A stretch of 64,000 nucleotides of DNA, taken from Anadara kagoshimensis (taxonomy: Eukaryota; Mollusca; Bivalvia; Arcoida; Arcidae). A program made the position numbers and the translations under genes. Below the pieces are notes generated by a model, which saw nothing but the letters and a program-made list of their open reading frames with translations, searched no databases and was not told the origin of the DNA. Below are positions 17,006 through 45,100 of the stretch, in pieces. The number at the start of each line of letters is the position of its first letter. Position 1 is the first letter of the stretch. The DNA lies in the NCBI GenBank assembly GCA_021292105.1, contig CM037867.1, forward strand, positions 9,428,728 to 9,492,727, read 5' to 3'.

Positions 17006-17182
17006 CTATTTGACTTGTTCAACATAATTAGATGGAAGCATGCCTCTTTGGCCTGTTCTCTGGACTGTACCCATCATCCATCCAGCATCTACTGGTTGAC
17101 AAAAAGTTATCTCATCGCCATCTTGAAAACTAACTTCATCATCATCGGCAGCGGTATAGTCGTACATTGCTTTACATACCAT
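17006..17182 (-). CDS. LASP: LASP last exon, SH3 domain
   Basis: 58 codons and TAG. The acceptor TCCTTTCCAG precedes [20 protein letters not shown]; the domain then runs through [19 protein letters not shown] and [12 protein letters not shown]. The ALYDY-like AMYDY, the GW of the binding groove and the PSNYV motif are all present, so the ligand-binding surface looks intact. The exon begins in phase 0, matching the end of the Pro/Gln-rich exon. The length fits one SH3 domain with no C-terminal extension, as in other LASP proteins. Confidence 0.97.
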
Positions 17183-20100
17183 CTGGAAAGGATGGAGACA
17201 AATTAAAATAAAGTTATAAATGATATGTGTAACAGTTTATTTTATCCCCCATGAAATATTTTCCTAGGATGATATTTTCTTGTGAGATTTGTTCAATGCA
17301 AAATATTTTATAGGTAAATATTATCCATGGATAATATTTTACGGAGTAAGCCATGACATTTATTCCGCTGGATAGATTTTACCATGAAATTATATCCTCC
17401 AGGACATATTTTCACCTGGATAAAATTATCGATTACATATACATTTTCAAAAGTATGCCAAAGCCAAATCAACTAAGAAATCCCCAACTCTTTGCATGAC
17501 CAGAATACATATAGCCAATGGCACATACATCTACATAAAGATTGTTCCTGTGTAGTTTCATAAAGATCTAAGAATGGAAGAAAAAATAACAGCAGAAGAA
17601 ATAGAGGAAAAGCTGTGTCACTCACATTGTTTTTGGGAAAATAATAATTTGATGAATAAAATCAATAAAATGTGAAAAAATAAAAATGAAAATAAATTGC
17701 TTTTCATATGATCTATATGGTTTTGTGAATTGTTTCCTATAATACATATGTATACGGTTATTAAAGATGCCAGAGTGACTATAAGATGAACATCTCTATT
17801 AAAGAAAGAGATAAACAGATGTGGAAAATTCAATGTCCTACAGTTTCTTTCTGGTTCAATGAGATACAGGGGTGTGGAAATTCAATCTCCTATTTTTCCT
17901 TTCTGGCTTAAAGAGACACAGGGGTGTGGAAATTCAATCTCCTATTTTTCCTTTCTGGCTTAAAGAGACACAGGGGTATGGAAATTCAATGCTCTAGTTA
18001 TCCTATCCGGTGCACACCTGGCACAGGGGTGTGGATATTTGTGTCTTATTTGACCTGTATGGTACAAAGAGATGCAGGTGTATGGAATTCCAATGTACTA
18101 AGGAATTGTAATGTGCTAGTATTGCTTGTGCTTTTCAGTACCTAGAGATTCAGGGATGTGGAAAACCAATGGCACAAAGAGACCCAGTGCTTTATTTGTA
18201 TTCATTAGATTTCCTGTAAATATTTTCTGAAATTTACTGTCACAAACAAATTGACACTGACAGTATGTATGATCAAATTTGTGACCCCGCACTTACAACA
18301 AACATGCCATCAATTAAGATATCCAAGTGTTTAAGATTAATTATAAATTGAAATAAAATACTGCATAAAATTTTAATACAATAATTTACCCCTTTTGACT
18401 GTCTATCCACTGGTGCCTGCGGGGGTGGAGGCTGATACTGCTGCTGGGGTGGTGGTGGTTGATATTGCTGCTGGGGTGGTGGTTGATACTGTTGGGGTGG
18501 TGGCTGATACTGTTGGGGAGGAGGCTGGTACTGCTGCTGGGGTGGTGCTTTGTATTGTGACGCTATAAGTAAAAGAGTAAATAATAAACAGTAAATATAA
18601 AAAAGAAATTTTCACATTAGTAATTTTTTGCAAGAATCAACATTTTAAGATAGCCGTATAATTTTATTTTATTTCCCAATAATGGTCTGTAAACATGCAG
18701 ATGAATGGTATCAAAATTAATTCACGAAAGCTCTATTTTCGCATATTGTTACTCTCATTAAAATATGCAAAAAATAAAACAAATGCCAAATTTTTCGATT
18801 TACAGTATATGGTAATGTAATCATACTTGCCTACACTTTCCTGAGACAAGGAGTAAGTTTGTATAAATTTTGATCATAAGTTTTACAAAATCTGTCGTAA
18901 GGATTCCTGTATTTGACTTGACAAAATATGGATATGCTGTATAATTTTTTATCCCATTGTTTCTTTCCTCATTTAGATTGGCAGCCAAAGATCCTGATTG
19001 GCAGCTAAAGATTGTCACTTTTATGCCCATGATGTAAAGAAGCCATTAATTAACAAATGTACATCACTGGATCCCCGTCTTGCACACTTGGACAGTATTT
19101 ACACATTGCCCTTTGCTCAGTTTGAATTGTAGGAAGTTGCCATTTCACTACAAACACGGACTAGAAAACTGTTTCAACTCCAATTACAGGATTCTTTTTT
19201 AGTTCTAAGTTTTTACTTGCAATCATAAGGTCGTAATTTTAACCTCAAAATCGTACAACTTACGCCAAAATCGTAAGGGTAGGCAAGCATGGTATGTGTA
19301 TTTTATACATGAAAATAAAATTTTCATGAATATATATATTTTATTTTAATATGATTGTAATCGTCCATCGTTAATTTTAAGATGCTTTATTTCACAGTAT
19401 GACAAAGTCACTTCAAGGTATGCTATTTCCAAATTTACCAATCGTTTTTTCATTCTAGATTATAATTGTATACTGATTTCAGGTAACTTGGATTGATCCG
19501 ATAGGCCAACAGCATGGCTCAAAATGAAGAGATCATGACATTAAAGTCCAAAATATGGACCTTTTTTTTTTTTTTTTTTTTGCTTATTACAGTGGCTATA
19601 AATAATTTACGAAGCAAATGTTATTATTAAGTATTGCTTTCAGTTTTACCAGTAGTTTAGTTAATATGATAGTAAACCTGTATCATGATATGTCATTTAA
19701 AAAACTTCACAAACAGAGTAAGAGTTAAATATAACAGAAACAAAGATTCAATGTACATGTATCTTCAAAATGCAATGAAAAATGGAGGAACAAAAAGCTA
19801 CACACAGTAAGGAAGTCGGATGGAAAATTTTTCCAGTAAGCATAGAACCAGTTTTTGGTCCGAAATATCATTCAACATCCTGACATCCTGGAAATAGTGA
19901 ATAAACATTCATTCTTCAGCCATGCTCACCTTGCCCAGCTATTGAACCATATCTGTCATTCATGGGATCATAATCAGCAATACTTCCAACTTTACGGCCA
20001 GAACTGGCACTCTCCACTGAAAAAACAAACACAAACACATTCCTGGGTAAATTTAAGCCAAACCATAGGTAACAAAGACATGCTCAGATATTTCATATTT

Positions 20101-26100: not shown

Positions 26101-26896
26101 TGGAGTTACATAATTCACTGTCACAGAAATAGTGATACAGACAGTATAAACCAATTAATTTGAAATCAGTTAGCCATCATGTTATTGAAAAAATACAAAA
26201 AAATATCTGGGTGTAGGTTGATGGAAAATAATCCTAAACAAAATGTTAGGGATGTTAGAGCTGTTATTTTCAGCTGTGTAAGTGTACCTCAAAAAACCAA
26301 AGTTTTATTCTCAACTTTATTGTTTAAAAATGTTAATTAATTTCTCTTAGTTAATGGAGTTGATTAGAGTAATGATGTTAAACGTCCCAGTCAAGAATAT
26401 TTCATTTATATCCAGACATCACCAGCTCTAGGCGAGGGTGCAGACATTTTGCCTGTGTGTTTTGCTGATGGCATTATACAACATGGTTCTTTGTCTTGCC
26501 TTGCCTGAAGTGACACTGGATCTGGTTTATTTTAAGTTCCCATCCAAAAGAACCATGACTTTCATTTGGTAATGCTGGGTGCTTGGAAAAAGAACATTCA
26601 CTATTCACCGGAGACCCGAGACTTATGGAGTGAGCACTCTACTAACTGAGCAGTGGTTCTTTTAGTTAATGAAATCATGAGTTACAAATGAATCATGTGA
26701 TACATTGAATATAAGTGTGAATATAAGCTTTTTTTTTTAGGTCAGATTGATTGAATTTCTTACATTGTTGTTTTGTGAAAACATTGCTGGTATTCTAGGT
26801 TTCTACAAATATGTGTTGTAAACATTTCAGAGTCAAAATAATAGCTCTGTGGGGGTAATGATGTACATGAATAAATGCTGATAATGATCAAGATGT

Positions 26897-26959
<63 letters not shown>

Positions 26960-29900
26960 GAATAACCAAAACATGCTTATATTCAAATATTCAAAAACAA
27001 AAGTTTAAAACAATATACACATAGCAATTCACATGATGACAGCATGGTAAAAGTGAACTTATACAGGTAAAAAATGTTCATAATAAAACCTTAAAGTACA
27101 GTAAAACCTGTATATATATATATATAAATTGTTCATTGGACTGTAGAAATTACATTGTATATCATGTACATTTTGAAAGTTTATTTCGGTTAAAAATAGT
27201 GAAACAGAATTGAACTCAATTTTGACTTCCTAGTTTTCTGAGTGTTCAAGTTAAATAAGAGTTGAGTAATGGTGTTTAACGTCCCAGTCAAGAATATTTC
27301 ACTTATATCGAGATGTCACCAGCTATACGCGAAGGTCATAAATTTTGCCTGTGCGTTGCGCTGATGGCATTATACAGCAGGATTCTTTAGAGTGCCAAGC
27401 CCACTGTGACACGGGACCTCGTATTTTAAGTTCCAATCCAAAAGAACCGTGACTTTCATTTCGTAATGCCGAGTACTTGGCGAAAGAACAGTCACTACCC
27501 ACTTTCAAGTCTTGGATCAGACCTGGCCAGGGATCAAACCCATGACCATCCATCCACTTACGGAGCGAGCACTCTACCAACTGAACTACTGCAGTGGTTT
27601 TCAAGTTTAATAAGAAAAGATGACACAGAATATTGGGTTCACATAAAGACTTCAATGAAGATGCTCAAAGTATTAAACAACAGAGTATCTGAGTATCTAA
27701 GTTCAAGTACTGAGCAAAAGTAGAGTTATTCCCCTTCAACAATTTTGTTTTTGACTAAGAAACCACTGCCAAACATATAGGTTACACAAGACGTCAAAAT
27801 GAAGTAAAATAAATGGCTTTTAATGTTGAAATGGTGTATTTGGCAAATGCGTGACTCTTTAGGTTTTTAGAAATTTTATACCCATCATGGGTCATAGATA
27901 CTTTGCAGTTCATACCCATGGCTGGAGGGAGATGGCAAGTCTGCTTTAATAGAGAGGAGGTCTTATTAAGAGGCGCTGGTATAACAGGTTTTACTGTATA
28001 TATCTAACATCACAGTACAGTTGCACTTAGCAGTTGACATTTTATGTGAAAAAATGAAAACAAAAATACAGTGGAACCTGAGAAAACTGAACCCAAAAGT
28101 TGTCTCAACTGAATTACTTAGATTTGAGACTATGTATTAGGACACATCATTACTTCATCAGAACAAATCATTCAAATTTAATGCTATATCAACCTAAATT
28201 ATGAAATGGAGAAAATAATCTGTGAAAATACCTGTCTTATCTCAACAAAGTAATTAGTCTGGAAGGTGTGCTGTTTAGACAGGTTCCACTCTATGTACAT
28301 ATATAGCCATATATAGCATTTCATCATGACAAGTACAAGCGTACTCAAACAGGTCAACTCACCTTTACCGATCTCGGAATCATATACTACATTGGTTTGT
28401 GAAGTTCTCTGTGAGTAAGGGGTACCTCCTGACTGAACTGGGGGATCATATTCGCTAATTTTACCAGGGTTACGACGACGAAATTGCTGGGCATCTGAAA
28501 TTCGAGATAAAAGTTTTTTTTATAGAACTGCAAAATTTACAAAGGTTGCTGGGCATCTGAAATATGAGATGAAATGTTTTTTTTCATAGAATTGTAAAAT
28601 TTACAAGGATTATGATGGTAAAAATGCTGAGCATCTCAAATAAAAGATAATGATTATTTGAATAGAATTGCAAAATTTACCAGGATCAAAATGGCAAAAA
28701 TCCTGGACATCTAAAAACAAGATAATGGTTATTTGAATAAAACTACCAAAATTAACCAGGATCACAAGGAAATTAACGTATCGCCGGCCACGCCCACAAT
28801 GTTCCGTCAAATGGTTGGATGCTTGATTTACATGCAAAAAAGAATGAAAACTCAGCCTGAATAGCGCCATTTAATGACGTCACTGACACTAGTATGTCAT
28901 TAGTTGCCGTGACGCTGCTTTGGTACCGTGATGGCGGCCAGTGTCAGAACAATGTGGGCGTGGCCGGCGATCCATCAATTGCTGGGAATCTGAAGGTTAT
29001 TTACCATGGTCAAAATTGCAGAAATCCTGGACATATGAAATGCAAGGTAATGGTTATTATAATAAAATTTTCAAATTTACCAAGATGACGGCAAAATGGC
29101 TGAGCATTCAAGAAATACATGATAAAGATTATTTGTTATTTGAAAAAAAATCACAACAATTTTACAGGATTGCAATGGCAACATATTGGCATCTGTAATG
29201 TAAAATGATGATAACTTGACTTCGATCTAGATAGACCTATTGTTGAATCATAAATGTGTAAATATTACATCTGAAATTCATTTACAAGTTAAAAATAAAT
29301 TTAACAAAACCAATCACAACTAATACTTCAAATTCAGCAAAAAAAAATAGTGGCCTTTTTTCTTTCAATATTGGGACAGATGGCCAGACAGGATGATTCC
29401 TATAACCCCCCCCCCCCCCCCCCCCCACTTCAATTGTGTGGCATATATAAATGCTAAAAAGAATATGAAATGCACTAACAAAGATGATGAATCATAAATC
29501 AGCTGACCACTCGGTCAACAAAACCCTGAGTTAGGCAGACATTCATCAGCCCTTAAAACCTTCTCTAATAATACCTCCTCCTGGCTAGGACGATTTTCTT
29601 CCATATGCTGTTTTTGTTCTAAAGTTCCTGATAAGCCACATTGCTAATCGTCTTCATATGCTGTTTTACGCGGGTTGTTTCTGGATCATCATCCACCGAA
29701 ATCTTTTTGCCTTTCTGTTTTCAAACTCTGATGATATTCACCTGGAGAAGAAATTAATATGATAAAATAGATTTATCAGCATTTCAAATTCCAGCCATTA
29801 GTAGTCTGAATGATAATATTGGAGCAGTATTGGTACATTGCGACATTTCTCCTATCTAGATCAGCCAGAAACAGGTTGAACTGATGTAAAGTAACTCCAA

Positions 29901-32900
29901 CACCCCTACCGCTTTTTAACATCACCAATATGGCCTCTAGTGGTGTTGCCACCTAAAAGGGAACCTTGCATCATTGGCCCTAAAAAAGAAATTTTAACAG
30001 CCCACAAAAATGACAGCAGTGGGCCAATCATAGCAAAAATGTTTCCAATCCATTTTGACTGATGAGAAAATACTGATTTTTATTTTTACCCCAGGTATAT
30101 AGTAGACTTGAGAGAGTTTTTAGAAAGACTTAATTTTTTACACTTTGCTATTTAAACGAAATTTCTCAGGAAATGCCATCAACATGGCGAAACATGTTAA
30201 ATACAGTCTATCCTGTCATAACAGCTATACAGGGAACCAATAAAACGTGGCCTTTATCGGAAGGTGGCCCTTATATACAGGTCAAATAATATGAATAAAG
30301 AGCCATTGGGACAATTTTTCACTGGCCTTTAGAAGCAGGTGGCACTGATATAGAAGTGGCCTTTAAGGCAGGTTCTACTGTAAATAACATAGGACTGTGT
30401 GATGTCTTCTGTAATTTTGTATTAATTTTTTTAACTTCAGAACTTTCTTATCCACAAGGATCTTCCATCAGACTCTAACACCACCGATTACCATAAAGGT
30501 GTTGATTCTCTTGTTATTCAATTTAATACTTCTAATATTTTTGTAATAAAAACCATATATATGAAAAACTGATTGATCCAATTTGTGACAATAAGAACCA
30601 TTTTCAAGAGTCAAAAACATAAAAACATAGTCTAAAGCTCTGTGTGAACTGAAAACCTGTCCTATCTGAACCAGAAGTTGTTCAGTTTCGGCTGGCCCCA
30701 GTTTCAAAATCATTCCTTAACTAAGAGTTTCTTAAATTTAATCTTGCAAAATTGATAATCTTAATAATGTTGTTATTTTTTTAAGATATTCAAGAATTTA
30801 AGGTGCCATTTTGAAGATCAGTTCATGCATACAATATCTGCATCAAGTTTTCTCACAAATGTTTCCTAGTAGCTTAAAAAAGATCATCAATATTTGAAAG
30901 GTCTAAGTTAAGGATAATCTTAGTCAATAAATGATTGTAAAACTCGGGTCTGGTTATACTGTATTCATTTAATATTCTACAGATTAAATATCATTTGAGG
31001 ACAAATAATAGAAATAATGAATATTTTATTAAATCAGTTGTTAAAGTGGTTGTTCTGTACGAGGGAAGAATGCAAAATATTGCTAAAGAATAGCTTTCAA
31101 ATGAGCCTAAGCAAGCAATGAAACAATGGCAGTATTATCTTATAAACTATTATTTACCACTGCGGTAGCTCAGTTGGTAGAGTGCTCGCTCCGTAAGTGG
31201 AAGGTCGTGGGTTCGAACACCAGCCGGGTCTGACCCAAGACTTGAAAGTGGTAGTGACTGTTCTTTCACCAAGCACTCAGCATTACGAAATGAAAGTCAC
31301 GGTTCTTTCTGATGGGAACTTAAAATAAACGAGGTCCCGTGTCATGGTGGGGTTGGCACGCTAAAGAACCCTGCTGTATAATGCCATAAGCGCAACACAC
31401 AGGCAAAATTTCTGCACTTACGCCTATAGCTGGCAACATCTCGATATAACTTATAAGTGAAATATTGTTGACTGGGACGTTAAACACCATTACTCACTCA
31501 CTCTTATATACTATTAATATAAAAGATTTTGTAAAATAGGATAACCGTTTTGTTTTTTTTTTATTAATAAATAGTGTTAGCATGATATGTATCATGTTTG
31601 CCAATAAATCATATCAATTATCAAACCATACAAATCATGTATATGCATCAACAAATCACCTTTAAATATTTGTATTTGATTTTCAAGGTCAAATGCTCCA
31701 ATGGGTAAAGAATCTAACCAATAATTTGATTATTATGATAAACAGGAAAACCACTTAAATGGAGAGTACAACCTATCAAAACTACGGTACATTATATTTC
31801 TTTATTTACCCGGTAGGTAGTTGAAATTTTCCACAAAATAAGATTGAAATGCCATTTTTTCATTATCAGGGTTCGTACAGACATTTGGACTCCAAATTTA
31901 AGGACTTTTTAGGGTCTTTTCAGGGTCTTATTTGCAAATTTAAGGCCTAATCAAAGGGACAATTTTAGCAAAAAAATATTGGTGCAAAGCCAATTAAATG
32001 AATAAAACAATTATTTACTTGTCCATAGTAATGATACTTGAAGTGGAGGTTGAAGTTTGGTGTTTCGTTTGGGCCAGGTACCTTTAAGTTTAAATTGCCC
32101 ATTTCAACATAACTTATGAATTAATTATTTATTGATATCAATCTATTTGCAACCACTTAATATCGAAATACAGACACCCAATGGCCAAATTCAAGGACTT
32201 TTTAGGGCCTTCAGGATAAATTCAAGGGCTTTTTAGGGTCAGACTTGTTTTTAGGGTCTTTTTAGGGCAAACCTAAAACTTTAAGGACTTTTCCAGGCCT
32301 GTACGAACCCTGAAGATTCAAATGCCATTTTTTCATTATCATGGAACCCAGATCTGGTGCCAATAGGGCCTACAAAAGTTTGTTTTGTCTATGTAATCTA
32401 AAAATCATAACAGTAACAGAAAACTCATTTTAATATATTTGAGAATTTGAAAGTGATTCGTAAACTCATTCTCATAAAAGTTGTGCAAACTGGAAAATCA
32501 AAAGTACATTCACTGAAAATCCATTCCAAATACAATTGACAACACAGTGGAATCAAACCAAGCTTAATGTCAGTTATCCAAGATGACTACTTCCAAAATC
32601 CAGGAACATTTATAATTAACATATGGCATAACATTATTTAAGGTATTTCAGGTGTGTTCAAATATATGTCATAATATTATTAAAGGTATTTGGTTTGTTA
32701 AAAAATTCTCTGGTGCGACAAACAAGTTTGAAACAGCAGTTAAACATGAACCTTAGTTAAAGAAGTATGGTGATTTAATGTTAACTGTTTTAGAGAGGGT
32801 ACACTTTCAAAACATCAGTGACAATTTGAGGGGACGTGAGGGGATGTGAGGGAAGGAAGAGTAAGGAGTTAATGCTGATGTCAATAATGAATCAGAGGGC

Positions 32901-33393
32901 TCAGAAATTACCTGAACTATCAATGTTAACACATTCAAATGTCATTCGCTTATGATCAATTGGATAGAGACCACTATGGTGGCTCAAATGGTAGAGTGCT
33001 CACTCTGTATGTGGGAGGTTGTGGGTTTGAACCACAGCCAGGATTCTGACCAAGACTTGAAAATAAGTAATGACTATTCTTTAGCCAAGCACTCAGCATT
33101 TGGAAGTCATTTTGACCATAATAAGAAACCTTAAAAATTGATGCCCATTTTTTCAAGGTGGCATGTTAAAGAACCCTCCCTGCACATTGTCCTGAGAACG
33201 AGCACATTGCCCTAAAACACTTCAAAGGAATTATTTGCCATTTCACCTATAGTGAGTAACATCTCAATATATGTTAACTATTCTTGACTGGGATGTAAAA
33301 CCCCATTTAATCTATCAATAAATGGATGGATGCAAGCATGGTTTCATGGTATGTCAAAATTCCATGTTCAATTTCCAATAGATAGTATAGTTT

Positions 33394-33427
<34 letters not shown>

Positions 33428-34345
33428 TACACCTTTCAGATGAAACTCAGGAATCTCATTGATATCTCATTCATCTCAAAACCATGCCATGATTTTTCAA
33501 AAATACATCAGGTTTTAATTAGGGTATAAAGGTAAAAAAATGTTTAAAAATGGGCAGTGGAAGTAAGTGTTATCCAAGAAAATGTAAGAACAGGGTCCGT
33601 GGGAGACTTTCAGAATTCCATGCCAGATTACCAAATATGGTTGTATATACCAGGCTAAAGTTTTCAACGTTTTTCCGATGCCTCTGCATTTCCACGGTGT
33701 CTGGAAGCTGACAGGAATAACCTTTTAGCTTTTCAAAATCACTTTGGTATTGAATCTGTTTTTTTAATAAAACAATAACAAGTTATAACTTTCATTATAT
33801 CTGCGAATTAATGCATGTATTTTCAGAATTCAATCTTTTTTTTTTAATAAAACAATACAAATGATGATTTTCAAATTACACCATTGTTAAGAACTGCAAA
33901 TAAATACAAGCGTTTTCAATTCAATCTTTTTTTAAAGTAAACAATACGAGTTCAAATTTTCAAATTACATTATAGTTAAGAACTGCAAACATGACTTTAG
34001 TCTTTAATTTTTTAATTTATTAATTCCTGCAAATTACACAAAAGTTAAGTGCATACATTAAATTACTGACCAGTACATGTATTTTTAGAATTCAGTCTTA
34101 AAATATAACAATTTTATTTAACCCTTGATCTGTATGAAAGAATGAAGAACTCTTTAACATCCTACATTTATACCAATAACGTAAACACATTTATCATGTA
34201 TCAACCACATTAATTACGAGACAAAACTCGTGAACACAAAATTATTCCATTTAAAATACAAAGTTCTACAAAATTTTGTAACTAATATAATCAGAACCTA
34301 AATCAAAACATCTATGTAATCTCAACACTGCCCCCTCCCTCATCT

Positions 34346-34636: not shown

Positions 34637-37600
34637 CACTCACATGCACAGACACATGCATTCACATGTATGTATAAATACCACACATTTCACAAAATTG
34701 TAATCAAGACTAAAATTATTAGCATAAAATCTTTATTATATTTTCTGCGGGGTAGGGGGGTGGTGGGGAGATAAAATGGGATGGTTATTAATGATCAAAA
34801 GTAGATTAAGATGAACCATAAAACAAGCTCAACATTACATAATCCATTATTATTAAATTTTTTAGCAAATAATAATAATTCAGGTCCAGAAATTATATGG
34901 GACTGTGGCTTAATCGAAAGGGACTGTGGTGTGTGGGTTATTGACCTTGTCAACAATCTTTAACATACACCGAAAACATTTCCTATAAATGAAGAGCAAT
35001 ACAATTTTGATTTCACTCAATTTTTGGCAATTATATTTAAAGGAAAGTGTAGATAAATGTTATGGTAGGGGCATCTAATAATGTTTATGGTATCTAGGTC
35101 ATGCTCAACAAATGTTGAATCCAATGTCTGTATCACTGTTTGTGGCAGCAAATAATGCAAAATTTCCATAGAAAGTTAAATGTACCAGTATAAAGTGTGG
35201 CATTTTTTACTTGCAAATACCTGCAAATCATACAAGATTAGCAAATTGGTGAATTAGGATTGTGTATGTTCAAAGGCCATAATTCTTAGGAAAAAGTTCC
35301 TGCTATGGGGATTCTTGTGTTGAAAAAGTGTTGAATGATAGATCTTTTCCATATATACTATACAGGTAAAATTAATATATCACTTCAAGTCTAATGTGAC
35401 AGCCATTTTCAAACATGTAATGATGTTTAACGTCCTAGTCAACGAAATTTCACTTATATCGAGGCATTGCCAGCTACAGGCGAAGGTGCAGAAATTTTGT
35501 TTGTGTTGCGCTGATGGCATTATACAGCAGGGTTCTTTATCGTGCCATACCTACTGTGACAAGAGACCTCGTTAAATAAATATTTTCTATCCAAAAGAAC
35601 TGAGACTTTCCTTTCATAATACTAAGTAAGTGCTTGGCAATGGAACAGTCACTACCCACTTTCAAAGCGAGCACTCTACCAACTGAGCAATGGAAGTAAG
35701 GACAACAATGTACTTTTTACAGAGATATTTCATAGTATACTAGAATGTGAATAATGATCTTAGGCTCATGTGAGATGTTAACAATATCAAACTTTAAGTT
35801 TAATACTGGATTTTCTATGAAAAGTTTGCAAAATAGAGTGCCATAAACACAGTGATACCAATAATAAAACGAGAAAAGGACAACCTAATGCTAGGAGCCA
35901 ACAGGTGTTCTGGTAGTCTATATGTACATATAGAACACTGACTGGAACCAGTGCCAGGTTGGTTTTAACAAATCTTAAACCAGCAATTAGTCATGTGTAG
36001 GTTAGAAACATTTGCGAGAAAACATATTCCCAATTTTCAAGGTGACCCCTTGTCCCACTAATGCCACAAATGTATCTTCTCAGTAAAAACTTCCTTATTT
36101 TACCGGTACATTTTACCTACAGTCCGAACCACGAAAGTTTCCTACTGCTAATGTTTCTTCTTATACAGTTTGAAAATATTTTTGAGACTTAAAATCTATG
36201 AGCTATACAGGTACCGTACCAAAACACTTGTACTCCTAGCACAACAATGGAAGGTCTACAAATAAATACAGCTAAACTTTGATAACTTGGAACTATATGA
36301 GACTGATTTTGATGTAAACTTTAATTTGACGACGATGGCGGTATCAATTTAAGAATAAGATAATGGGAAACACCAAACGCTGAGACCACCAAAAATGACT
36401 TGGTTCCCAAAAATTGACAGGGGTTCAAAATTGGGTTTTGCAATGGAGGGTCCAGGACCTTAAATTGTGACTTTTATTTTTTGCAAGTCCCACAAAGTCT
36501 AATATCAAAATTGAAAGACCCATGTGTAATTATGTTATTAAAGAGAAAAGGCTGGATTATCCTATTTAAAAAAGCAGGTCCATATAACTTTTATAGTCTA
36601 ACTATTAAAGGTCTAAATGTTAAATCAAAAGGTCCCGACCTCGTACCCAGGGAATTTTGAATCCCTGATTGATGTCCAAGTTATCACTGTTTGACTATAC
36701 AAATTTTTATAAGGTTTGACTGGTATTTCTTTAATTCTCTTCTTAAGGAATAACTATAAAGAATCGGGATGGACATTTAATAAGTTCAAACCATATAAGA
36801 AAATTGATACCAAGCTAAATTTTTTGCTGTTTTCCAGATGATGTTTAAGGATTAACGGGTCTGCGACGGTCGTGATTGTACCTTTTGACTTTACGAAATC
36901 GCTCTGATACTCTACCTATGTAGTTTAAACAATAATTTATTCACTTAAAGGCATACAATCAACATTAGAGTGACACACAAATAGTCAGTGCAAGGAAAGG
37001 ACTCGAGAGAAAGGCTACTAGACCAAGGTCTTATATTAACTTGTCTCTATATAATCTTTGCTTAAATTAGCAAGATAAAATCAGGCAAATCAAATAAAGA
37101 ATCAATTCAAGATGTATCAAAATGTCATTTTGTACCATGCTGTTAAAATTACAAATGATATAAACCAGAGGCTCAGTGTGGCTGAGCCTGTATCGCTCAC
37201 CTGACTAAAATGCTTTTAAAGCAAATTTGTATATATGCTTTTCCCATAGGGTCCAATGTGAAACAATGTTCTCCGCTGGCAGCCATGTTTTATGGCAGAT
37301 CAGAAAAATTTTGGCAATCTATGTAAAGGACCTTCTATACATCATTCCTGTAAAGTTTGGTTCAATTTGCTTCAGTCATTTCTGAGGACATAGTCAAAAA
37401 TGCGTTTTTCCCATAGGGTCCAATGTTAAACTATCTTTTGCGCTGGCAGCCATGTTTTTTGGCAGATCAGAAAAATTTTGGCAATCTATGTAAAGGACCT
37501 TCTATACATCATTCCTGTAAAGTTTGGTTCAATTTGCTTCACTAGCTTCAGAGAAGATAACAAATATATGCTTTTCCCATAGGGTCCAATGTGAAACTAT

Positions 37601-42100: not shown

Positions 42101-45100
42101 AGGGCCATTTAAACATTAAATGCATTAATCAAGGACCATTTAAACACTTAAGAATGCATTATTCAAGGACCATTTAAATACTGAATGCATTAATCAAGGG
42201 CCATTTAAACACTGAATGCAAGAATCAAAGATGATTTTAAATGCTATTAATGCAAGGAACATTTGAACACTATTGTGATAAATACAACACTCAAGCTCAC
42301 TTAAAGCATAATTATGGACAACTATAACAGCATAAACCTGTCTATACTGCAAGTCCTCAAAAATACCTTAGCTGAAACACCCATGCAAGGATATAACATT
42401 GGGTGTTCTATCTTCATACAGAGTGAGCTATAATGCAAGTCACATAATCTAGACAGTTAACACATCCCTGAGCTAGATTTAAACAAGGAAGGCGTGCCTA
42501 CTATAAAACAGAGTTATACCAAGCTGGCGTTTTTGGTATTTTGTAGGTTTCTTTGCATATCTAGCGTATCTGTGACCTGAGTGTATGTACCTCGTCCCCG
42601 TTCAAACTCACTGTGATATTGTACCTGCAGACGGAAAATTCACACACGTGATGTCCAATCAGATAAAAATTAACAATGGATAATCAGGGAGACATAATCA
42701 ATTAATCAATTGATTAATAATTGGAATTACGGGTACATAATAATAAAATTGTACATCAGTTAGAAATAAAGCTGGCAAATACCATAATAAGAATTTAATT
42801 TTGTGTTTAAGAAGAACCATATGGCTCTTTCTACTTTTGTTGTTCCTCAGTGATGATACTTCTAAACTTTAGAACTTGTGGTCCCTGAATACGGATCATT
42901 GTCCGATCACTGTCCGCCATGTTGTTTAAGAAGGAAGAAAAGGAAATGAAATGGACTTAACAACAATCCAGAAACTATTCAGATATTGGCAATGATCAAT
43001 TATTAATCTTGTGCTCGATTATTAGGATTGCTGCTCTGACAAGGACCGACAAGCGATGTCCCATTATTGGACATCACTAATTTACAGAGACCAAAACAGT
43101 GTAAATATTTACAATGTCCATGAGGCATTCACACCTCAGAGTTCAATCTATTTCACTTAAATTTCAACTACATATCCACATATAAATTTGATTGGTTCAA
43201 AAATTGAAATTGACAAATGTAATTTTTTATAGAAACAGAATGATTCAAAGGGAGGTAACTCATTACTCTATAATCTATATTTTCAAGGGAGATAACTTAC
43301 ATTACTCTGAATTAATGTGTTATCAGCTATTCTTCTCATTTCTGGTGTGTCTGCGACTTGTGTATGCTTTGTTTGTGGATAATGACTAAAATAGAAACAT
43401 GAAAATACACATAAAAAGAAAACACACAGTCATACCAATTTAAACTAGAAAAATGTGAGCCAAAAGCTCACAAAAAATACCTCCCGCTTTTTTTAATTTT
43501 TAAATAGGAGGTGCACATCTACATTATATCACAAAGATTGTGTGAAAGTTTCCTGAAAATCCATTGAAGGGTTTAGGAGGAGTTGTGGATAAGAGATAGG
43601 TACCCTAAGATGTAACGGAAGGACGGACGGACACACGGACGGACACCCCATATCACTATATACCCCCCACTTTATAAGCAAGGGGTATAAATATTTTACA
43701 GTCTAATATGCATGAATTAGCAAGAGATGGACACCAAAAATCTTAAAAAGATTCTTCTCACCACCTGGATTTGAATACTTTTCTGAATCTAGTAGCAGAA
43801 AGTTTGTCGATTCGCTTGTCAAAGGTAAATGTTAATCATTTACTATCAAACAGATAACAGTGAAAAAATCAATAGGCACCAGTGTGCACAAGCCGAGTTG
43901 CAATTCCAAATTCTATACGATGTATGTTTTACATACAAAATTTTAGTTTCATAATTTGAGAGAAGTTGAAAATAGGTATTAACGACTCATACACGCACAC
44001 ACACGCTAAGCTATGCCATAAGCACATAGATCTCTAGTCAGGTAAGATAAAAAGTAGATTTGCTTCATTATTTGCATTTAACCACTTTTAGAAGCTGAAT
44101 AAGGGTCCATATTTTGGACTTGAATGTTGTTGGGATAACAGTGAAATTTGATCTCCTCACTTTCTGCCATGTTGTTGGTGTTTCCAAGTTGCCTTTATAA
44201 ACAGTATACTTCTAAACTCTGGAGTGAAAAACAAATGGGAAATTAGGGACTGGCTTACCCTAATGTGACTGTCATCGTGTAAACCAAAAAGTTTTAGAAT
44301 TAACTGTGATATACTGTAGAACAATATAACGTTATGGTCCTACATCATGGAATCCAATTATTCCTCAATGACCAGAATGAAATCCGATTCAACATTTACA
44401 GTTCAAGGCCCCAGTATTACAGTTTTACAATCATTCCTTAACTAAGATTTTCCTAACTTAAACCTGACAAATTTTGTCAACATTTTATGGTGTTACAAAT
44501 TAAAAGTTTGACAAAATTTAAAATACAGCATTTATAAGCTTTGACTGATCTTCAAAATGACATCTAAAATTACTGAATATTTCCAAAATTTACAAAATTA
44601 TTACAGTATGGAATATTTGTCAAATTTACAATTAGGAAAATCTTTGTTAAGGAATGATTGTGAAACTTGAAATCAAGTGTTTAAACTTAATGATTACTTA
44701 CGCATTGCAATATGGCATTTTGTCGTAACCTTTGTAATTTTTCATATTTAGTGTCATGTTGCATACTTGACATTTGAAACATCCTTTGTGCCATACCTGA
44801 AAGTAAACAAGAAAGTTTGAAAATAAATTCTGTTTACAGATTTGTAAAATAAATTATGGTAAGAACAGAAAGGAAGCTGTGAATCACAAAATTTTCTGTG
44901 TTAGTAAAATCGCTACAGAAATATCTTTTACGATACATATCAACCTTGCTGCCTTCTTTAAATGTGTCTTCTACTTGAAAATATATTGAAAGGACTGACA
45001 AGAACATGTAAGAGAATATTTATTTCTATTTTTTTTTTACATGACTTTTTTAAAAGTGGTGGTTAGATTGATTGACTGATTGATTGATTGATTGATTGAT

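What the first reader, a model, noticed from the sequence alone, without database searches (positions are those of the whole stretch)
29575..29741. A third LASP nebulin exon with a broken frame
The minus strand here has a strong splice acceptor and a clear nebulin repeat plus linker ([18 protein letters not shown], then [11 protein letters not shown] in another frame), in the correct order between two LASP exons. The frame is lost by what look like four one-base deletions, three of them in short A or T runs. Either a third nebulin repeat (as in LASP-2/nebulette) is decaying in this lineage, leaving a two-repeat protein, or the assembly carries homopolymer errors. The other eight exons are free of such errors.
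Basis: partly seen in the sequence, partly recalled or inferred. Interest (0 to 1): 0.72.

Follow-up and report, generated by a model that had tools for sequence, protein, structure and literature searches.

The report
Intact LASP exon, faulty assembly patch
The 'broken' exon of this actin-binding LASP gene looks like a stretch of uncorrected sequencing errors, because a second copy of the same locus in the same genome assembly reads it through cleanly; the gene itself appears to encode five nebulin repeats rather than the usual two or three.

Summary
In detail: window 29741-29575 (minus strand) is a LASP nebulin-plus-linker exon whose frame is lost. Real decay is not supported. The same assembly holds a second copy of the locus 289 kb upstream on the same contig, where the exon is 172 nt and fully open. 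Between the copies the exon shows no substitution, only five one-base gaps in the window copy. About 1.1 kb around it carries 19 one-base deletions; its main 500-bp bin has 11 with 0 substitutions, against a mean of 0.90 over 97 bins. Uncorrected consensus explains this better than decay. The exon is the fifth and last repeat exon, not the third: two intact 105-nt repeat exons lie at 36915-36811 and 33755-33651. Spliced from copy A, the gene gives an open 434-aa LASP: LIM, five nebulin repeats, linker, SH3. So the broken frame is most likely an artefact. The five-repeat form is a modest side finding: the one survey read reports two repeats in all five LASP proteins of the non-human animals it studied (PMC3305314 section 10). 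No reads, transcripts or related species could be examined.

The parts
63973..64000 (-). LASP exon LIM1, its 3' 28 nt only (the exon runs past the window end to C11:9492768; [23 protein letters not shown])
   Evidence: bases beyond the window fetched; same exon in copy A
44702..44796 (-). LASP exon LIM2 (95 nt), second half of the LIM domain
   Evidence: identical in copy A
43301..43385 (-). LASP exon N1 (85 nt), first nebulin repeat
   Evidence: identical in copy A
42520..42624 (-). LASP exon N2 (105 nt, phase 0-0), nebulin repeat
   Evidence: identical in copy A
36811..36915 (-).
   Evidence: no Pfam hit on its own; one difference between the copies, at a third codon position in the alignment
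33651..33755 (-).
   Evidence: identical in copy A
29575..29741 (-). LASP exon N5, last nebulin repeat plus start of the linker; 167 nt here with five one-base gaps, 172 nt and open in copy A
29183..30281 (.). patch of one-base indels with few mismatches relative to copy A, spanning a run of 21 C at 29406-29426; read as uncorrected consensus
28363..28494 (-). LASP linker exon L1 (132 nt, entry phase 1)
   Evidence: identical in copy A
19930..20016 (-). LASP linker exon L2 (87 nt)
   Evidence: identical in copy A
18390..18562 (-). LASP linker exon L3 (173 nt), QYQPPP-rich
   Evidence: identical in copy A
17006..17182 (-). LASP exon SH3 with stop codon (177 nt)
   Evidence: one difference between the copies, at a third codon position in the alignment

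Best explanation
The exon is an intact, ordinary part of an animal LASP gene: the last nebulin repeat and the start of the linker. It looks broken only because this copy of the locus in the assembly contains a patch of about 1.1 kb of uncorrected consensus sequence, mostly with single bases missing. The locus occurs twice on the contig, most likely as two allelic haplotypes placed one after the other. Where the two are nearly identical (window about 26.5-34 kb), reads used for correction may have been drawn to the other copy, leaving this one unpolished. Shown: the second copy, its open 172-nt exon, the gap-only difference in the exon, the local excess of one-base indels, the open 434-aa spliced product of copy A. 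Inferred: that the bases are missing from the data and not from the animal, that the duplication is allelic, and the polishing mechanism.
For: Second copy at C11:9169301-9169660; open 172-nt exon; exon plus 30-bp flanks aligns over 233 columns with six one-base gaps, all in the window copy, five of them in the exon, and 0 mismatches. Of 97 bins of 500 bp with at least 300 aligned columns, the mean is 0.90 one-base deletions; the bin at 29500 has 11 with 0 substitutions, the bin at 30000 has 6 with 4, no other has more than 4; the whole comparison has 1,279 substitutions, 92 one-base deletions and 71 one-base insertions in 48,156 columns. With that mix of events, nine in a row without a substitution would have a probability of about 3e-9, and 11 or more deletions in one bin about 2e-9 (rough, since rates vary along the locus and events need not be independent). 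Copy A splices to an open 434-aa LASP. The ten exons of the window show 2 substitutions in 1,222 aligned nt against 599 in 25,652 non-exon nt of the gene, as expected of a gene under constraint.
Against: No raw reads, read depth or RNA could be examined. One of the five exon gaps is outside any homopolymer. The patch is not deletion-only: the alignment has 5 one-base insertions in the bins at 29500 and 30000 together. The MAFFT alignment shows 13 mismatches at 29958-30160, in clusters that I read as displaced indels without testing it; the MAFFT alignment also places a two-base gap with mismatches where searches place single gaps. Substitutions are so rare near the exon (6 of 2,856 flanking nt) that their absence alone says little; the weight lies on the excess of indels. 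The duplication has not been shown to be false. The planned check of frameshift rates in other genes of this assembly was not done.
Confidence: 0.92

Rival explanations
1. A true tandem duplication of roughly 290 kb, in which the window copy of LASP has lost this exon by real mutations while the upstream copy stays functional.
For: The copies lie in the same orientation on one contig, 288,876 bases apart, and are collinear in the stretches compared. The exon is broken in the window copy.
Against: Five gaps in 167 nt with no substitution in the exon, within 19 one-base deletions in about 1.1 kb, is not the spectrum I would expect of mutation. The other nine exons of the window copy are intact, with two substitutions in all. 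Several percent divergence with large insertions is what two haplotypes of a highly polymorphic animal can show (recalled, not tested).
Confidence: 0.05
2. One reading: a nebulin repeat is decaying in this lineage and transcripts skip it, leaving a shorter LASP.
For: The frame is lost in the window copy. A skip could stay in frame if the internal acceptor at 28486 were used.
Against: The exon is intact in the other copy of the same assembly. N2, N3 and N4 are intact, so a skip would leave four repeats, not two. Through the acceptor at 28494 a skip gives a stop before the SH3 exon.
Confidence: 0.02
3. The exon is a stray duplicated fragment, not part of the gene.
For: None found beyond the broken frame.
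Against: It has splice sites, the right order, and in copy A the length (172 nt, 1 mod 3) that joins phase-0 exon N4 to phase-1 exon L1. A DNA search of the own genome returned it only at the two LASP loci (2 candidates, both scored; such a search can miss diverged copies).
Confidence: 0.01

Closest known systems
LASP1 (LIM and SH3 protein 1)
   Same: LIM, nebulin repeats, linker, SH3 in this order. Solved-structure matches include LASP1 SH3 (3i35) and a 31-residue LASP-1 LIM chain (1zfo), among 55 sequences that are mostly other SH3 and LIM proteins.
   Different: Five nebulin-repeat exons against two repeats; three extra 35-aa modules between the first and the last repeat.
LASP2 / LIM-nebulette (NEBL)
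   Same: Same architecture with more than two repeats; the best solved-structure match of the whole protein is the nebulette SH3 (4f14, E 2.7e-20).
   Different: Three repeats by PMC3305314 (section 10); five encoded here.
Drosophila Lasp
   Same: LIM, nebulin repeats, SH3.
   Different: Only two nebulin repeats (PMC9140763 passages; PMC3305314 section 10).

Membership tests
LASP (LIM-nebulin-SH3) class | N-terminal LIM domain | tested here: met
   Pfam LIM 28.0 bits, cut-off 22.9, on a spliced protein that lacked exon LIM1
LASP (LIM-nebulin-SH3) class | Nebulin repeats after the LIM domain | tested here: met
   Pfam Nebulin 79.5 bits, cut-off 20.1, three stretches passing on their own in the spliced protein. 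Exons alone: N4 20.5 bits, N5 19.9, N2 14.8, N3 no hit (N1 not given). A local profile built from these repeats and two human ones finds all five (partly circular)
LASP (LIM-nebulin-SH3) class | C-terminal SH3 domain | tested here: met
   Pfam SH3_9 50.5 bits, cut-off 30; tblastn 67% identity to LASP1 208-261
LASP (LIM-nebulin-SH3) class | Two nebulin repeats at fixed spacing, as PMC3305314 reports for the non-human animals it studied | tested here: not met
   Five repeat exons encoded. Human NEBL with three is still placed in the class, so repeat number does not exclude membership
LASP (LIM-nebulin-SH3) class | Binds actin and focal-adhesion or Z-disc partners | not testable with these tools
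   Needs expression and binding assays
Decayed (pseudo-) exon | Disabling changes accompanied by substitutions | tested here: inconclusive
   No substitution in the exon against copy A, five gaps; but the surrounding sequence also has very few substitutions (6 of 2,856), so the argument rests on the excess of indels

The most novel reading that the evidence does not exclude
This animal's LASP gene encodes five nebulin repeats, three of them on symmetrical 105-nt exons (N2-N4) any subset of which can be left out in frame, so one locus could make LASP forms with two to five actin-binding repeats.
Probability: 0.6. Interest if true: 0.42.

Novelty: not a real feature. Interest (0 to 1): 0.22.

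Why it matters
The broken frame should not be read as biology: an annotation built on the window copy alone would truncate or mis-splice LASP and could be reported as lineage-specific loss. The by-product matters a little more. The survey read here says that all five LASP-class proteins of the non-human animals it studied have two repeats, and suggests that rigid spacing limited the spread of nebulin repeats (PMC3305314 section 10). A gene with five repeat exons, three of them skippable in frame, would be a counter-example that transcripts could test.

Tried and rejected
Rejected: real decay, and a stray fragment (see rivals). I first took the N runs of 2,500 to 7,500 bases near the copies for assembly gaps; their lengths are multiples of 2,500 and the tool says that withheld stretches read N, so they were not used as evidence. 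The argument that skipping the exon always loses the frame was weakened when an internal AG at 28486 was found to restore it. A planned genome-wide check of frameshift rates was not done because the genome search stayed busy.

Led nowhere: Pfam Nebulin search of the own genome (no match, and none in its 14 control genomes, so it shows nothing); Rfam over the window (one weak tRNA match). Paper searches: (LASP or nebulin repeats with mollusc, bivalve or oyster) returned 0 papers each; one search listed 20 of 502, none of the 20 holding 'nebulin' or 'lasp'; one search listed 6, of which three were opened (PMC3305314, PMC2359764, PMC9140763); one search listed 4, of which PMC3305314 and PMC7109182 were opened; ('five nebulin' with LASP) listed one, on NRAP, not opened; (false duplications in bivalve assemblies) returned 0; (haplotigs and polishing) listed 3, none opened. 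These searches are all that stands behind 'not found in print'.

Full report
What was checked. The minus strand at 29741-29575 was read directly. It has an acceptor, nebulin text split over two frames, and a donor. The list of open frames showed one more nebulin segment at 36915. A profile made from seven repeat segments, five of them from this gene, found five repeat exons on the minus strand; the next match in the six-frame peptides of the window had E 2.1. The E-values of the five are partly circular; the lack of a sixth is informative.

A second copy. A search of the window's own genome with 351 bases around the exon gave two places: the window itself and C11:9169301-9169660, 98% identical and nine bases longer, 288,876 bases upstream. 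The exon with 30-bp flanks aligns over 233 columns with six one-base gaps, all in the window copy, and no mismatch; five of the six are in the exon. An event list from a wider MAFFT alignment agrees; the MAFFT alignment places one pair of these gaps as a two-base gap with a few mismatches. In the other copy, called copy A here, the exon is 172 nt and reads [57 protein letters not shown] plus one base. Four of the five missing bases are in A runs of two to five; one is an isolated C.

The indel patch. Between the copies, 48,156 aligned columns hold 1,279 substitutions, and 92 one-base deletions and 71 one-base insertions in the window copy; alignments under 300 columns, under 88% identity or off the main diagonal were dropped before counting. 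Of 97 bins of 500 bp with at least 300 aligned columns, the mean is 0.90 one-base deletions. The bin at 29500 has 11, with 0 substitutions and 4 one-base insertions; the bin at 30000 has 6, with 4 substitutions and 1 insertion; no other bin has more than 4 deletions. In all, 19 one-base deletions lie between 29183 and 30281. The MAFFT alignment of the same stretch shows 13 mismatches at 29958-30160, in clusters that I read as displaced indels, without testing it. A run of 21 C lies at 29406-29426; it is 31 C in copy A. From about 26.5 to 34 kb the copies have almost no substitutions outside that cluster. Uncorrected long-read consensus gives such a pattern (recalled); decay alone would not be expected to. 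That correcting reads were drawn to the other copy is inference.

The gene. Copy A splices to an open frame of 434 aa from 11 exons: LIM1 69 nt, LIM2 95, N1 85, N2, N3 and N4 105 each, N5 172, L1 132, L2 87, L3 173, SH3 177. Leaving out any combination of N2-N4 keeps the frame; leaving out N5 loses it before the SH3 domain if the acceptor at 28494 is used. An internal AG at 28486 would keep the frame on skipping N5, so the phase argument supports, but does not prove, that N5 is needed. In the window copy, N5 as assembled gives a stop with either acceptor. The window copy's first LIM exon runs past the window end and has the same coding sequence as in copy A.

Are N2-N4 real exons? Each is 105 nt, phase 0-0, with AG and GT at its ends in both copies. 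The donors of N2-N5 begin gtat, those of LIM2 and N1 gtaagt and of L1 gtgagt; gtat is the weaker form (recalled) and would fit alternative use (inference). Between copies the ten window exons hold 2 substitutions in 1,222 aligned nt, against 599 in 25,652 non-exon nt (exon bounds there were a few bases off the final ones); both are at third codon positions in the printed alignments. N2, N3 and N4 together show 1 substitution against 8.9 expected from flanks of 1.5 kb (0 of 2.9, 1 of 5.0, 0 of 1.0; Poisson 0.001). For N4 and N5 the local divergence is too low to tell. Pfam alone is less clear: three nebulin stretches pass on the spliced protein, N4 alone passes the cut-off, N5 and N2 alone fall below it, and N3 alone has no hit; the exons are 35-aa pieces of a repeat that spans exon junctions. 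No transcript was available.

The duplication. The window is collinear with C11:9146323-9206591 in blocks, those over 1 kb being 91-97% identical, with large insertions between them. Outside the window, 1,227 unmasked bases at 9420001 match 9135758. Of seven small stretches fetched as probes, six match in place and one (9300001-9301500) has only short matches in several places; two of the six, at 9380001 and 9529001, are repeat arrays and so weaker evidence. Without those two, collinearity is supported from 9022045 to 9207064 in copy A (185 kb), and to 9247568 if the last is counted. The sequence between the probes was not all compared. This looks like two alleles placed in a row, but read depth was not available and a true tandem duplication is not excluded.

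Family. The spliced protein meets Pfam's LIM, nebulin and SH3 models. In the solved structures its best matches are SH3 domains of nebulette, nebulin and LASP1; a short LASP-1 LIM chain is also among the 55 sequences matched, below several other LIM proteins. A survey of LIM proteins (PMC3305314, section 10 read; passages) reports two nebulin repeats in all five LASP-class proteins of the non-human animals it studied and three in human NEBL. A muscle review (PMC9140763, passages) gives two for Drosophila Lasp. Passages of PMC2359764 and PMC7109182 gave no count for molluscs. Five repeats would be a new variant of a known kind.

Verdict. The exon exists and its frame is broken in the assembly; the break is most likely an error in this copy, not evolution, so the finding as written scores low. 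The novelty section rates the broken frame. The five-repeat LASP is worth a look with transcripts.

Noticed in passing
window 36915-36811 and 33755-33651 (minus): Two intact 105-nt nebulin-repeat exons that the finding's gene model passes over, giving this LASP gene five repeat exons.
   Followed up: yes
C11:9022045-9207064 (perhaps to 9247568) against C11:9320001-9493200 (perhaps to 9530200), the window included: Collinear duplication about 289 kb apart on one contig, long blocks 91-97% identical with large insertions; probably two haplotypes placed in sequence. Sampled, not compared throughout.
   Followed up: partly
window about 26500-34000: The two copies have almost no substitutions here although the flanks differ by several percent; could be a phase switch in the assembly, shared ancestry or gene conversion.
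   Followed up: no
window 29406-29426 (+): A run of 21 C within the indel patch; 31 C in the other copy.
   Followed up: partly
window 47121-47058 (minus): Weak tRNA family match (30.6 bits, gathering score 29), possibly a tRNA-derived repeat.
   Followed up: no
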